A stretch of DNA of 64,000 nt from Thermococcus sp. CX2. GTDB lineage: Archaea; Methanobacteriota_B; Thermococci; Thermococcales; Thermococcaceae. A program made the translations under genes and the position numbers. How positions within the stretch are numbered: the stretch's first letter is position 1; each line of letters starts with the position of its first letter. Below are positions 3,972-25,998 of this stretch, piece after piece. The notes beneath the pieces were generated by a model. It searched no databases, was not told the origin of the DNA, and saw nothing but the letters and a program-made list of their open reading frames with translations. The stretch spans positions 124,001 through 188,000 of the forward strand of contig NZ_SNUQ01000002.1 in NCBI RefSeq assembly GCF_012027555.1, written 5' to 3'.

Positions 3972-4046
3972 TTACATCGTCCCCAACCTTCACTGGGAGG
4001 AAAAAGCAGTGACATCAAAGACGATACCATAATCTATTCCAGAACT

Positions 4047-4080
4047 GACCTCCTTCCCGCCCTGAAGAGCGAGGCTTGAA
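4047..4080 (-). repeat. Solitary IS200/IS605-type end-like sequence
   Basis: Read on the minus strand this stretch is AAGCCTCGCTCTTCAGGGCG followed by GGAAGGAGGTC. It closely resembles the sequence beyond the tnpB gene at 24846-24870 and another solitary copy at 12394-12420. No transposase gene is beside it, so it is best read as a relic end of a lost element or a non-autonomous copy. It lies in the spacer between hel308 and the UPF0200 gene, just upstream of that gene's TATA box. Confidence 0.45.
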
Positions 4081-4107
4081 AAAGAGAAAAGTCACTGAAC
4101 GTGGATT

Positions 4108-12230: not shown

Positions 12231-12393
12231 AACCTTCCACCATTCTTCAATCGCTATCGGTCGTAAAAAGCCTTTCTCCTTGAGCCTATGAAGATAATAA
12301 GCGAAGAAACCGACCTCAAGATGAACCGGATGAGGTGCTCGTGATGACGAGAACTCAATGGCAAGCACTTCAGGAGTTTTACATTTTCTCTTT

Positions 12394-12426
12394 GAAAGCC
12401 TCACCCTTCAGGACGGGAAGCGTCAT
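12394..12426 (+). repeat. Solitary IS200/IS605-type end-like sequence
   Basis: AAGCCTCACCCTTCAGGACG followed by GGAAGCGTCATC resembles the sequence after tnpB at 24846-24870 and, inverted, 4047-4080. No transposase is adjacent. It lies about 165 bases upstream of the phosphopantothenate synthetase start, in the region where that frame is open but apparently non-coding. Confidence 0.45.
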
Positions 12427-22619: not shown

Positions 22620-23360
22620 TCAGCGGGATAGGATGTCAGATATCAATGTCTCCGCTATTCCAGGGGTTATAGCCCTCGCCCTGAGCTCACGGAGAACCCT
22701 CTGGATGGCGAATCGCTTTACGCTGGGCGCTTTCCTAAAGGTCTCCCACAGAAGGGGACAGCCGAACTTGAGGTCGTACTTTCCACCTATGAGCTCGATT
22801 ATCTCGGCCTTGTCGAGGGCAAGAAAAGCCGGGAGGTTCAGCGTTACCATGTCTCCGTTCTTGTAGATGGAAATAAGGCCAGAGCTCAGCAAGTCGCCGC
22901 TGGCTACGATTTTGGCACCTATCTCTCTCGCGTAGTCCTCAACGGCCTTTATGACCATCGAATGGCACCGGCCGCAGATTGGGGCACCCTTGTTCATCTG
23001 CTCAGCCATCGCCTCAAGATAACCAGGAATTTCAACAAAAACCGCGCCGTAGCTTTTAGCCTTATCTACAACCTTCTCGTTCATCTGGGGAAGCTTTGCC
23101 GTAACGGGGACAACCTCGAAGCCAGCCCAGCGGAGGATTTTGAGAGTCGAGGTGCTGTCAGAGCCGGCAGAAAAAGCCAGGGCTATTTTTTCACCAACGG
23201 GTGAGCGGTCGAAGTCTTTTCCAGTCAGACGATATTCAAGGAGGGCCTTAAGACGGGAGTAGGATCTCTCGCCAATGTAAGGCCTAACCTGCTCAAGGGC
23301 CTCGCGGTTGTACTCAAGGCGGTATCGCTTGACGGAGTCGTCTCCAACAACTCTCAGCAT
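22620..23360 (-). CDS. PP-loop (adenine nucleotide alpha-hydrolase) ATPase
   Basis: A 246-residue ATP pyrophosphatase-type enzyme. The PP-loop is ALAFSAGSDSTSTLKIL at about residue 58. GAPICGRCHSMVIKAVEDY (about 130) has a CxxC pair, and IVASGDLLSSGL (about 155) is the second nucleotide segment. Enzymes of this fold activate a substrate by adenylation, for example in tRNA thiolation or NAD synthesis. The particular reaction is unknown. Start chosen at MLRVVGDDSVKRY (23360), which lies about 25 bases from a TATA-like GTTAATAAG; the longer frame to 23468 runs into the neighbouring insertion element. Confidence 0.82.
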   Translation of the reverse strand: MLRVVGDDSVKRYRLEYNREALEQVRPYIGERSYSRLKALLEYRLTGKDFDRSPVGEKIALAFSAGSDSTSTLKILRWAGFEVVPVTAKLPQMNEKVVDKAKSYGAVFVEIPGYLEAMAEQMNKGAPICGRCHSMVIKAVEDYAREIGAKIVASGDLLSSGLISIYKNGDMVTLNLPAFLALDKAEIIELIGGKYDLKFGCPLLWETFRKAPSVKRFAIQRVLRELRARAITPGIAETLISDILSR

Positions 23361-23506
23361 CAAAGACCCGAAAGTTGCAGAACTTATTAACCTTACTCCC
23401 TTGAAAGCCTCGCTGTTCATGGTGGGGATGCAATAAACAAAGAACCGACCCATCGAGAAGGTAGGCAATACTCTTTTAAAACCTAAAAATCATACCATAC
23501 TTTAAG

Positions 23507-24823
23507 ATGAAGAGAACTGTAACAGTAAAACTCCAACCGAGCAAAGAACAAGAAAAACTCCTCACAGAGTTAGCTGATACTGGAGCAAAAGTCTGGAATG
23601 AAGTAAACTACCTTAGGAGAAGACAATTCTTTGAAGGCAAAGGAGTGGATTATGGAGCAACAGAAAGGACCATTTACGAGAAATACAAGGCTGAAATAGG
23701 TTCGGCAACAGTCCAACAAATCTGCCGAAAGAACGCCGAGAGCTGGCGGAGTTTCTTCGCCCTCTTGAGGAAACACAGGAAGAGAGAACTCCCCTACTGG
23801 CTTGGAAAACCATCACCGCCCGGTTACCAGAAGGAGGACGGCAAGAGAAAACCCATAATCATCTTCAGAAACGACCAATACAAAATTGAGGGAAACAAAC
23901 TGATTCTCAAAGGCATTGGTAAATACGGGAGGCTGGAAATCCAGTTCAAGGGGAGGATACACCTGGAGGGCAAGCAGGGGCGTTTGGAGATAGTTTACGA
24001 CGAGGCCAAAGGCAAGTGGTATGCTCATATCAGCATTTCAGAAGTCAGGGAGAGACTGGAAGGCAAGGAGTGGGTTAGCATTCCGAAAACACCAAAAGGG
24101 AACCTAACGGCTGGAATTGACTTGGGAGTGAACAATCTTTTGGCCGTTTATGTTGGAAACGGCCAAAGTTTTCTCGTGAATGGAAGACCACTAAAGAGCA
24201 TTGCCTTTTATTGGCAGAAGAGGATTACCAATTACCAGTCAAAGCTCAATAAAAACGGCAAGAAGACGAGTAAGAAACTGAAAAGAATGCATCAAAAGTG
24301 GAAACTTCAGGCTAAGGACTACGTGAATTCGGCGGTTAGACAAACGGTTAGGAAACTCTACGAACTCGGAGTTTCGAGAATCGTCGTTGGTTACCCGAAG
24401 GGCATCAGTAGGAACTCCGACAAGGGTAAACGCCAGAACTTTCTTCTCTCAAGAGTCTGGCTGTTCAACTACACCATTCAGCGTCTCAAAGAAGTTGCCG
24501 AAGAGTATGGTATTGTTGTTGAGGTTGTTGATGAGGCCTACTCTTCCATCACTTGCCCCTTCTGTGGACAGCCCCATTATGGGGCTCGCTTTGTTAGAGG
24601 ATTGTATTTATGTCCACGGAAGGGGCTGGTTTTGAATGCCGACCTTGTTGGAGCGTTTAACATTTTGAAGAAGGTTGTTAGAACGATAACCCCGACTCTG
24701 GAGGGTCTTATGGCCTTCCAGAGGAGGGGTAATGGGCCTAAGACCGGGCCTGAGGGGTTGAATGACCCGAAACTGGTGACGGGAGTAGGGAAGACCCCTC
24801 AAACCTCTCCAGCCCTTGGTTAG
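23507..24823 (+). CDS. tnpB: RNA-guided nuclease TnpB of an IS200/IS605 element
   Basis: A 438-residue TnpB, full length. RuvC-like catalytic acids are Asp205 (TAGIDLGVNNLLAV), Glu343 (EVVDEAYSSITCPFCG) and Asp379 (LNADLVGAFNILK). The zinc-finger has Cys350 and Cys353 but only Cys369 on the other side (YLCPRKG), so one usual ligand position is a Lys or is supplied by another residue. TnpB proteins use the RNA of the element's right end as guide and cut DNA at the element's target site, favouring its retention. C-terminal 50 residues are low in structure and overlap the region expected to give the guide RNA. Confidence 0.92.
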   Translation: MKRTVTVKLQPSKEQEKLLTELADTGAKVWNEVNYLRRRQFFEGKGVDYGATERTIYEKYKAEIGSATVQQICRKNAESWRSFFALLRKHRKRELPYWLGKPSPPGYQKEDGKRKPIIIFRNDQYKIEGNKLILKGIGKYGRLEIQFKGRIHLEGKQGRLEIVYDEAKGKWYAHISISEVRERLEGKEWVSIPKTPKGNLTAGIDLGVNNLLAVYVGNGQSFLVNGRPLKSIAFYWQKRITNYQSKLNKNGKKTSKKLKRMHQKWKLQAKDYVNSAVRQTVRKLYELGVSRIVVGYPKGISRNSDKGKRQNFLLSRVWLFNYTIQRLKEVAEEYGIVVEVVDEAYSSITCPFCGQPHYGARFVRGLYLCPRKGLVLNADLVGAFNILKKVVRTITPTLEGLMAFQRRGNGPKTGPEGLNDPKLVTGVGKTPQTSPALG

Positions 24824-24870
24824 GGGGTTCCTCGTTGGAACCCCCACCCTTCAGGGCAGAGAGGAAGTCA
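24823..24870 (+). ncRNA. Right-end structure of the tnpB element (guide-RNA scaffold candidate)
   Basis: Starts at the last base of the tnpB stop codon. A perfect stem GGGGGTTCC-TCGTT-GGAACCCCC (24823-24845) is followed by ACCCTTCAGGGCAGAGAGGA, a segment also found alone at 4047 and 12394. In TnpB systems the 3' part of the tnpB transcript and the right end form the omega RNA, with the flanking host DNA as guide. Here the guide would read into the bpsA promoter. RNA boundaries are inferred. Confidence 0.5.
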
Positions 24871-24945
24871 GTCCGGTGGAAAACCTTTAAAAGCGCCTTA
24901 CCTTAACCCCGTCCACGAACAAAAATCCTTCTGGAGGTGCTTGAA

Positions 24946-25998
24946 ATGAGGGAAATAGTGGAGAGGGTTAAGGAGAAGACGAGCATTCCCGTTTACGAGA
25001 GGACCGTCGAGAACGTTCTGAGCGCGGTTCTCGCGAGCAGCGACGTCTGGCGCATAGTTGACCTCAGTGAGGAGCCGCTCCCGCTGGTCGTCGCGGTGAT
25101 AACGGCCCTCCACGAGCTCGGCTACATCGCTTTCGAGGAGAACGGCGTGAGGCTCACCGCCAAGGGCAAGGAGCTGGTGGAGAAGTATGGAATCGGGTCA
25201 AGAAAGGACTACACCTGCTCCCACTGCGAGGGCAAGACCGTCGAGCTCGACGCCTTCAGCGATTTACTTGAGCAGTTCAAGGAGATCGTCAAGGACAGGC
25301 CCCAGCCGCTCCACGACTTCGACCAGGCCTACGTTACGCCAGAGACCACCGTGGCGAGGATTGCCCTGATGCACACGAGGGGCGACCTTGAGAACAAGGA
25401 GGTCTTCGTCCTCGGTGACGACGACCTGACGAGCGTTGCACTCATGCTCTCGGGCCTGCCCAAGAGGATAGCCGTTCTCGACATAGACGAGCGCCTGGTT
25501 AAGTTCATCGAAAAGGTCGCCGACGAGATAGGCTTCAGCAACATTGAGATATTCACCTTCGACCTCAGGGAGCCGCTTCCAGACTACGCCCTCCACAAGT
25601 TCGACACCTTCATCACCGACCCGCCCGAGACTGTTGACGCCATAAGGGCCTTCGTCGGAAGGGGAATTGCCACCCTCAAGGGCCCAGGCTGCGCCGGCTA
25701 CTTCGGCATAACGAGGCGCGAGAGCTCTCTCGACAAGTGGCGCGATATACAGAGGGTTCTCCTCAACGAGTTCAACGTCGTCATAACGGACATCATCAGG
25801 AACTTCAACGAGTACGTCAACTGGGGCTACGAAGAGGAGACGCGCGCCTGGAAGCTCCTTCCGGTTAAGGTCAAGCCGTCCTACAACTGGTACAAGAGCT
25901 ACATGTTCAGGATTCAGACCCTGGAGGGCTCAAAGGGCTACGAGGAAAAAATAGAGAACTGGGACATCTACAACGACGAGGAAGCCTCGACTACCTGA
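24946..25998 (+). CDS. bpsA: N4-bis(aminopropyl)spermidine synthase (branched-chain polyamine synthase)
   Basis: Aminopropyltransferase that adds two aminopropyl groups from decarboxylated SAM to the same nitrogen of spermidine, giving the branched polyamine hyperthermophiles need at high temperature. 350 residues. N-terminal winged-helix-like domain, CSHC zinc-type pair (YTCSHCEGK, about 90), then the Rossmann domain with FVLGDDDLTSVALML (about 150; the GDDD motif), IAVLDIDERLVKFIE (about 172) and FITDPPETVDAI (about 220). The ATG at 24946 follows GGAGGTGCTTGAA. TATA box CCTTTAAAAGC at 24883-24893, just outside the tnpB element. Confidence 0.95.
   Translation: MREIVERVKEKTSIPVYERTVENVLSAVLASSDVWRIVDLSEEPLPLVVAVITALHELGYIAFEENGVRLTAKGKELVEKYGIGSRKDYTCSHCEGKTVELDAFSDLLEQFKEIVKDRPQPLHDFDQAYVTPETTVARIALMHTRGDLENKEVFVLGDDDLTSVALMLSGLPKRIAVLDIDERLVKFIEKVADEIGFSNIEIFTFDLREPLPDYALHKFDTFITDPPETVDAIRAFVGRGIATLKGPGCAGYFGITRRESSLDKWRDIQRVLLNEFNVVITDIIRNFNEYVNWGYEEETRAWKLLPVKVKPSYNWYKSYMFRIQTLEGSKGYEEKIENWDIYNDEEASTT

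What the first reader, a model, noticed from the sequence alone, without database searches (positions are those of the whole stretch)
23462..24912. tnpB-only element whose guide would match the bpsA promoter
TnpB is full length with all three catalytic acids (Asp205, Glu343, Asp379), but there is no tnpA. A perfect 9-bp stem starts at the last base of the tnpB stop codon and is followed by a sequence that also occurs alone elsewhere. In known TnpB systems the guide is the DNA just beyond the right end; here that is the region just ahead of the bpsA TATA box. The zinc finger also seems to lack one cysteine (CPRKG).
Basis: partly seen in the sequence, partly recalled or inferred. Interest (0 to 1): 0.5.

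Follow-up and report, generated by a model that had tools for sequence, protein, structure and literature searches.

The report
Lone tnpB element with guide RNA
A transposon fragment in a heat-loving archaeon carries a probably intact RNA-guided DNA cutter whose guide simply copies the spot where it sits, and its RNA resembles HgcC, an archaeal RNA family whose function was reported as unresolved.

Summary
Window 23397-24871 is a 1475-bp IS200/IS605-type element with tnpB only, in a Thermococcus-like genome. Three close relatives keep the empty site (joint exact in G029): TTAC on the left, TCAG on the right, no duplication. No tnpA was found in the assembly. D205, E343 and D379 are invariant in 50 of 50 aligned sequences (window included). 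E343 is the known 'alternative' glutamate; the fourth cysteine is absent in all 50, a lineage trait. The right end encodes a covarying RNA structure.

The guide does reach the bpsA promoter, but only because the element landed there. The guide DNA is preceded by GTCAG, not TTAC, and no exact TTAC plus first eight guide bases occurs in the assembly, so cutting or regulating bpsA is not expected. Homing or retention at the empty allele is the likeliest function.

The wider lead: this RNA matches Rfam HgcC (39.4 bits, below gathering 50). HgcC's model itself contains the element's right end plus about 13 more positions. Of 30 HgcC loci examined, 25 have tnpB sequence beside them. For the top one, eight of eight compared empty sites carry TCAC followed by its 3' tail (six exact, two with one change). 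HgcC looks like TnpB guide RNA.

The parts
23393..23396 (+). TTAC, target motif (TAM) in the left flank
   Evidence: TTAC is present at the empty site in G029, G039 and G026; five identical tnpA+tnpB copies of G076 all share TTAC with different flanks beyond it.
23397..24871 (+). the whole element (tnpB-only IS200/IS605-type); edges may shift by up to 3 because TCC follows both TTAC and TCAG
   Evidence: Empty sites in L042, L043, L044.
23408..23427 (+). left subterminal palindrome CCTCGCTG-TTCA-TGGTGGGG, weakened (4 Watson-Crick and 4 G-T pairs of 8, read by eye in the canonical register); the terminus before it is about 5 bases shorter than in most solo copies listed
23474..23481 (+). TATA-like box of tnpB (TTTTAAAA)
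   Evidence: Read from the sequence; inference.
23507..24823 (+). tnpB, 438 aa, RuvC D205/E343/D379, C350 C353 H357 C369
24682..24871 (+). predicted omega RNA scaffold (right-end RNA), overlapping the last ~45 codons of tnpB; 5' end not determined
   Evidence: Fold z -5.37; covariation; 26 of 26 tested pairs kept in the window copy.
24804..24864 (+). long-range RNA stem CCTCTC (24804-24809) with GAGAGG (24859-24864); one pair is changed on both sides against the family (CG to TA)
24842..24861 (+). right subterminal palindrome CCCCACCC-TTCA-GGGCAGAG, weak as a DNA hairpin (5 of 8 Watson-Crick)
24872..24887 (+). predicted 16-nt guide; genomic flank, 5' neighbour is GTCAG (no TAM)
   Evidence: Empty-site comparison; 16-nt guide length as for ISDra2 (PMC8612924, passages).
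24732..24884 (+). full-length match to Rfam HgcC RF00062, 39.4 bits, below gathering score 50; ends 13 nt beyond the element
24886..24893 (+). bpsA TATA-like box TTTAAAAG, intact to the right of the insertion
   Evidence: promoter reading is inference.
24946..25998 (+). bpsA (branched-chain polyamine synthase; ATG at 24946, longer ORF from GTG 24937)
   Evidence: Pfam BpsA_C 400.4 bits.
22620..23360 (-). divergent gene; ATG at 23360, so the ORF listed to 23468 runs falsely into the element
   Evidence: function not assigned (no Pfam family at E 0.001; only sub-cut-off NCBIfam matches).

Best explanation
This is a non-autonomous IS200/IS605-type element that carries only tnpB. A TnpA supplied from elsewhere inserted it, 3' of a TTAC in the short gap between two divergent promoters, in the lineage of this genome after it split from the three sampled close relatives. 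TnpB is probably an active RNA-guided nuclease. It uses an RNA made from the 3' end of tnpB and the right end, plus about 16 nt of flank (24872 onward) as guide. Its target is TTAC + guide, that is the empty allele: in a sister copy after excision, or in incoming DNA from a relative. Cutting there and repairing from the filled copy would keep or spread the element. It does not cut or regulate its own bpsA promoter, because the motif there is GTCAG. Shown: ends, empty sites, intact frame, conserved acids, conserved RNA structure, no TAM at the guide. Inferred: expression, processing, cleavage, homing, and the donor TnpA.
For: Empty sites in three close relatives, the joint exact in G029 and diverged by a few bases in G039 and G026. 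Five identical tnpA+tnpB copies in G076 share 1895 bases from TTAC to TCAG with different flanks. Strong family and fold matches: NF040570; Foldseek to AsCas12f 8j12, ISDra2 TnpB 8h1j/8exa and Fanzor2 9b0l (model mean pLDDT 73.8, below 50 in parts of the zinc-finger region). D/E/D each 50 of 50. Median pairwise dN/dS 0.115. RNA: 116 cells with changes on both sides against 45.0 in shuffles, 0 of 500 as high; weaker measure, 14 such pairs against 10.8, 16 of 500 as high. Window copy 26 of 26 tested pairs, as in 30 of 57 others. TTACTCCRGTGG has no exact match in the own assembly. Related RNAs are transcribed in T. kodakarensis from start sites inside transposase genes, same direction (PMC4247193, passages).
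Against: No RNA or nuclease data exist in these calls for this copy. The left terminus is about 5 bases short and both DNA palindromes are weak, so the element may no longer move. TnpB has the longest end branch of 50 (0.59, median 0.14) and the most private departures from conserved columns (19, next 14), so some loss of function cannot be excluded; its pairwise dN/dS is third highest of 50, though dS is near saturation. The assembly has 25 contigs, so a missed tnpA is possible. Which relative is nearest depends on the measure: G029 by flank DNA (95.5%), G039 and G026 by BpsA (99% against 98%).
Confidence: 0.78

Rival explanations
1. A decaying relic: the element can no longer move, and TnpB is drifting towards a pseudogene without yet having a stop codon.
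For: Short left end and weak palindromes; longest branch and most private changes; no tnpA found in the assembly.
Against: Frame intact over 438 codons; median dN/dS 0.115, near the family; catalytic and Cys/His positions kept; 26 of 26 tested RNA pairs kept, four of them with both sides changed against the family's commonest pair. Both dN and dS are high, which fits an old unsampled lineage as well as drift.
Confidence: 0.15
2. A domesticated RNA-guided regulator of bpsA (in the manner of TldR): the TnpB-RNA complex sits on the bpsA promoter.
For: The guide would span the sequence just ahead of, and the first bases of, the bpsA TATA-like box.
Against: No TAM next to the guide; catalytic residues intact, while TldR is catalytically dead (recalled); no copy at this site in the three close relatives; the match follows from insertion alone.
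Confidence: 0.03
3. Read-through only: transcription from the tnpB promoter runs through the right end into bpsA on the same strand and alters its expression, with no role for the guide.
For: Same orientation, 74 bases between the element end and the bpsA ATG.
Against: No transcript data; compatible with the main explanation rather than exclusive of it.
Confidence: 0.04

Closest known systems
IS200/IS605 tnpB-only elements (IS1341 group; name recalled)
   Same: Solo tnpB, TTAC target on the left, TCAG right end, no target duplication, subterminal palindromes, guide from the right flank.
   Different: Single copy, divergent protein (best relatives 74-75%), short left terminus, weak palindromes.
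SisTnpB1 of Sulfolobus islandicus (PMC10640517, part 1 of 2 of the text read)
   Same: Archaeal, hyperthermophilic, IS605-type, right-end RNA with two hairpins, TAM equals the left target.
   Different: TAM TTTAA there, TTAC here. SisTnpB1 itself was not compared; the best plasmid relatives of the window protein, Saccharolobus/Sulfolobus TnpBs, are 42.5-43.3% identical.
TnpBs with the alternative RuvC-II glutamate and D-Phi-G motif (PMC10711439, passages)
   Same: Six residues lie between E343 and C350 (ExxxxxxCxxC), and RuvC-I is DLG.
   Different: The second CxxC is broken here (position 372 is T, E, M, K or A); invariant H357 may replace a ligand (inference).
HgcC RNA, Rfam RF00062
   Same: Full-length match, same right end, then flank; related copies pass the gathering score (4 of 20 loci).
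   Different: The window copy scores 39.4 against gathering 50. The four top-listed loci are shorter, have a TATA-like stretch upstream, and lie divergent to a canonical tnpB.

Membership tests
IS200/IS605 element (tnpB-only) | TnpB with OrfB_IS605 and TNB domains | tested here: met
   Pfam 104.9 and 55.3 bits; NF040570 185.7 bits.
IS200/IS605 element (tnpB-only) | insertion 3' of a short motif without target duplication | tested here: met
   Empty sites; G076 copies.
IS200/IS605 element (tnpB-only) | subterminal palindromes at both ends | tested here: inconclusive
   Present in register but weak in this copy; right end 5 of 8, as low or lower in 9 other rows listed.
IS200/IS605 element (tnpB-only) | mobilised by a Y1 TnpA | tested here: inconclusive
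   None found in the own assembly; tnpA-bearing relatives share the ends.
RNA-guided TnpB nuclease | D-E-D RuvC triad | tested here: met
   D205, E343 (alternative position), D379, each 50 of 50.
RNA-guided TnpB nuclease | zinc finger with two CxxC (common, not defining: 'many TnpBs' in PMC10711439, passages) | tested here: not met
   Second CxxC broken in 50 of 50; C350, C353, H357 and C369 invariant. Zinc binding not testable here.
RNA-guided TnpB nuclease | structured right-end RNA | tested here: met
   Predicted structure only.
RNA-guided TnpB nuclease | guided cleavage next to the TAM | not testable with these tools
   Needs biochemistry.
HgcC RF00062 | Rfam gathering score 50 | tested here: not met
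   39.4 bits, E 8.3e-8, positions 1-130 of 130; the window RNA is therefore not filed as HgcC.
TldR (RNA-guided repressor) | dead RuvC (recalled) | tested here: not met
   Triad intact.

The most novel reading that the evidence does not exclude
Rfam's orphan archaeal RNA family HgcC is the guide (omega) RNA of Thermococcales TnpB elements. Its 3' tail is not part of the RNA proper but the guide, different from copy to copy. It occurs in three layouts: inside the 3' end of an alternative-glutamate tnpB (as in the window), as a separate RNA gene divergent to a canonical tnpB, and free-standing. Free-standing copies, one of them in this genome, could load a single TnpB with further guides in trans. 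Odds lowered from 0.7 to 0.65 on checking: the model contains the right end by construction, and some matches are bare hairpin elements.
Probability: 0.65. Interest if true: 0.55.

Novelty: new member of a known kind. Interest (0 to 1): 0.42.

Why it matters
The element itself is an ordinary, well-resolved tnpB insertion, useful because the empty site fixes its ends, motif and guide. The wider point is HgcC: a paper of 2017 still calls its function unresolved (PMC5732400, passages), while T. kodakarensis transcripts of it were mapped inside transposase genes in 2014 (PMC4247193, passages). If HgcC is the TnpB guide RNA, those data already show expression of TnpB guides in T. kodakarensis, and each copy's target can be written down from its flank and tested.

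Tried and rejected
Guide matches to viruses: six exact 16-mers in viral contigs, none preceded by TTAC; not pursued, chance level not computed. Viral contigs with close TnpB relatives: one distant hit at 34%. Plasmid source: 237 records, each best place under 60% identity. Flank of the free-standing copy at G000:C2:506534-506660: no match in three relatives (no positive control). Zinc ligands from the model: pLDDT under 50 in parts of that region, so undecided. A left-motif count by pattern was discarded because the pattern itself required AC; 33 of 56 rows fitted it. The pair count uses a register taken from the window copy and flatters it; the 26-pair set (20 pairs of the consensus plus 6 outer pairs of the long stem, the latter from the window fold) is given instead. 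Four further consensus pairs that compete with the long stem were left out of that set; the window forms those 4 of 4 as well.

Rows dropped: of 69 rows (output cut in the middle), 50 distinct full frames were aligned, the window's among them; L017, L026, L071 and L089 were left out for early stops, the rest as short or identical. For the RNA alignment 6 repeat contigs and 4 identical copies were dropped to leave 59; 58 were aligned (L159 left out as a near-copy of L158). Of the HgcC matches only the 30 given as loci (one per genome, best first) were examined. Of six tnpB matches in G024 three were fetched.

Full report
What is there. The window lies in a Thermococcaceae-type genome of 1.8 Mb in 25 contigs, 99.92% complete. 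Genus by name is indirect: a same-genus contig, G064 contig 134, has the same length (10,296 bases) as JAMONK010000134.1, titled Thermococcus sp.. TnpB is 23507-24823, 438 aa, with the two Pfam domains of the family and NF040570. The only other TNB-domain match in the genome is below cut-off, inside a 1234-residue open frame, and the protein search finds one place. Of 94 family genomes 80 have a match to the protein, the best 75% identical.

Ends. In three close relatives, G029 (98% BpsA identity), G039 and G026 (99%), the site is empty. G029 reads AACCTTAC|TCCAGTGGAAAACC; the window reads AACCTTAC|TCCCTTGAAAG on the left and GGAAGTCAG|TCCGGTGGAAAACC on the right. So the element is 23397-24871, with no duplication except that TCC follows both TTAC and TCAG. 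G039 and G026 also have TTAC there but differ by a few bases just after it. Independent support for the family's ends comes from G076, where five copies share exactly 1895 bases, TTAC to TCAG, with different flanks. In most solo copies listed the left terminus is ATTTTTCTTTTGAAAG or close to it; the window copy reads TCCCTTGAAAG, five bases shorter. Its palindromes are among the weaker ones.

Protein. In 50 distinct aligned sequences, the window's included, D205, E343, D379, C350, C353, H357 and C369 are invariant, and position 372, where a fourth Cys would stand, is Cys in none. E343 is the alternative glutamate described for Fanzors and some TnpBs (PMC10711439, passages); the canonical region reads GYPK. 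A distant relative outside the 50, L101 (32%), keeps the Glu but lacks the cysteines. The model (mean pLDDT 73.8) matches Cas12f, TnpB and Fanzor structures. The window protein has the longest end branch (0.59, median 0.14; bootstrap not settled) and the most private departures (19); its median dN/dS is 0.115, third highest of 50, with dS near saturation. An old unsampled lineage under purifying selection fits best; recent relaxation cannot be excluded.

RNA. The window stretch 24682-24887 folds with z -5.37, 0 of 200 shuffles as good. Across 58 copies, with a structure taken in part from the window, 87.4% of cells pair. Cells with changes on both sides number 116 against 45.0 in shuffles (0 of 500 as high). 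Pairs with such a change number 14 against 10.8, a weaker excess (16 of 500). Sliding the partners lowers the 116 to 10-49. On 20 pairs of the consensus plus six outer pairs of the long stem, the window copy forms 26 of 26, as do 30 of 57 others; six of its pairs differ from the commonest family pair, four on both sides. The DNA hairpin at its right end is weak (5 of 8), as in several other copies.

Guide and bpsA. The guide begins at 24872. Sixteen nt reach 24887, two bases into the TATA-like box of bpsA (24886-24893). The insertion leaves that box and the divergent gene's TATA-like box (23384-23390) in place (promoter reading inferred). The 5' neighbour of the guide DNA is GTCAG. TTAC plus the first eight guide bases (pattern TTACTCCRGTGG) has no exact match in the assembly, 13 matches with one mismatch are listed, and the total within two mismatches (246) is below the backward control (301). 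Over the first 16 nt the G029 allele differs from the guide at position 4 only. The nuclease is therefore expected to act on empty alleles, as proposed for ISDra2 (PMC8612924, passages).

HgcC. Rfam at gathering scores gave nothing here. A permissive scan gave HgcC over 24732-24884, all 130 model positions, 39.4 bits, with a weak sot0042 match second. Over 94 family genomes HgcC matches 75, above cut-off in 21; it also rings in 3 of 14 control genomes. The HgcC consensus itself contains GAGGAGGUCAG followed by about 13 positions, so that matches end just past such a right end is partly by construction: 29 of 30 loci by pattern, 10-14 nt past it, and L201 with GGTCGG. Not by construction are two things. 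First, tnpB: 20 of 30 have tnpB sequence upstream in the same direction (three of them, L196, L208 and L211, broken or cut by a contig end), 5 a divergent tnpB, 5 none found. Second, the tails: 29 different among 30, the two equal ones being orthologous copies L216 and L218. The top locus L189 has a canonical guided_TnpB divergent to HgcC. Eight of eight BLASTed relatives show the empty site, reading TCAC then the HgcC tail, CCTATTATTATTCC in six and CCGATTATTATTCC in two; three more relatives printed also have TCAC, with one or more changes after it. So in this copy the tail is flanking DNA next to the target motif, exactly where a guide should be. In G024, whose length 2,088,737 equals T. 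kodakarensis KOD1 as I recall it, three fetched tnpB genes each carry a sense HgcC; the 2014 transcriptome reports HgcC1-3 from start sites inside three transposase genes, same direction, two HgcC not near transposases, and a P. furiosus HgcC antisense to a transposase gene (PMC4247193, passages). Against: much of the window match is the shared right end, the window copy is below gathering, and two free-standing G024 matches (L222, L225) look like bare hairpin elements without the scaffold. In the held library no paper holds both hgcC and TnpB; of three holding hgcC and transposase, one, PMC4247193, concerns archaea by its title. Papers outside that library were not searched.

Verdict. Ordinary kind of element, correctly spotted; the bpsA link is incidental; the HgcC assignment is the part worth following.

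Noticed in passing
window 4045-4090 (-) and about 12383-12425 (+): Tiny elements of about 46 bases: left terminus, one palindrome, right terminus, no gene. A 33-base core pattern matches in 45 of 61 genus genomes, 0 in the backward control, though many listed matches look like right ends of full elements.
   Followed up: partly
G000:C2:506534-506660 (-), L034: Free-standing HgcC-like right-end RNA, apparently left from a decayed tnpB copy, in the own genome; could in principle load the window TnpB in trans.
   Followed up: partly
L189, L190, L191, L192, L210: tnpB of the canonical type placed divergent to its presumed guide RNA; in L189-L192 the RNA is preceded by a TATA-like stretch.
   Followed up: partly
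L010 and L147; L006 and L155: Solo tnpB insertions at the same site in different genomes, diverged (dS 0.32 and 0.36) with dN/dS 0.169 and 0.152: possible selection on immobile copies.
   Followed up: partly
upstream of tnpB in L017, L023, L080, L158: A shared upstream open frame ending ...WIKKVE..., abutting the tnpB start; possible partner gene (read).
   Followed up: no
L005:22-663 (-): CRISPR-DR41 repeat array next to a tnpA-linked tnpB.
   Followed up: no
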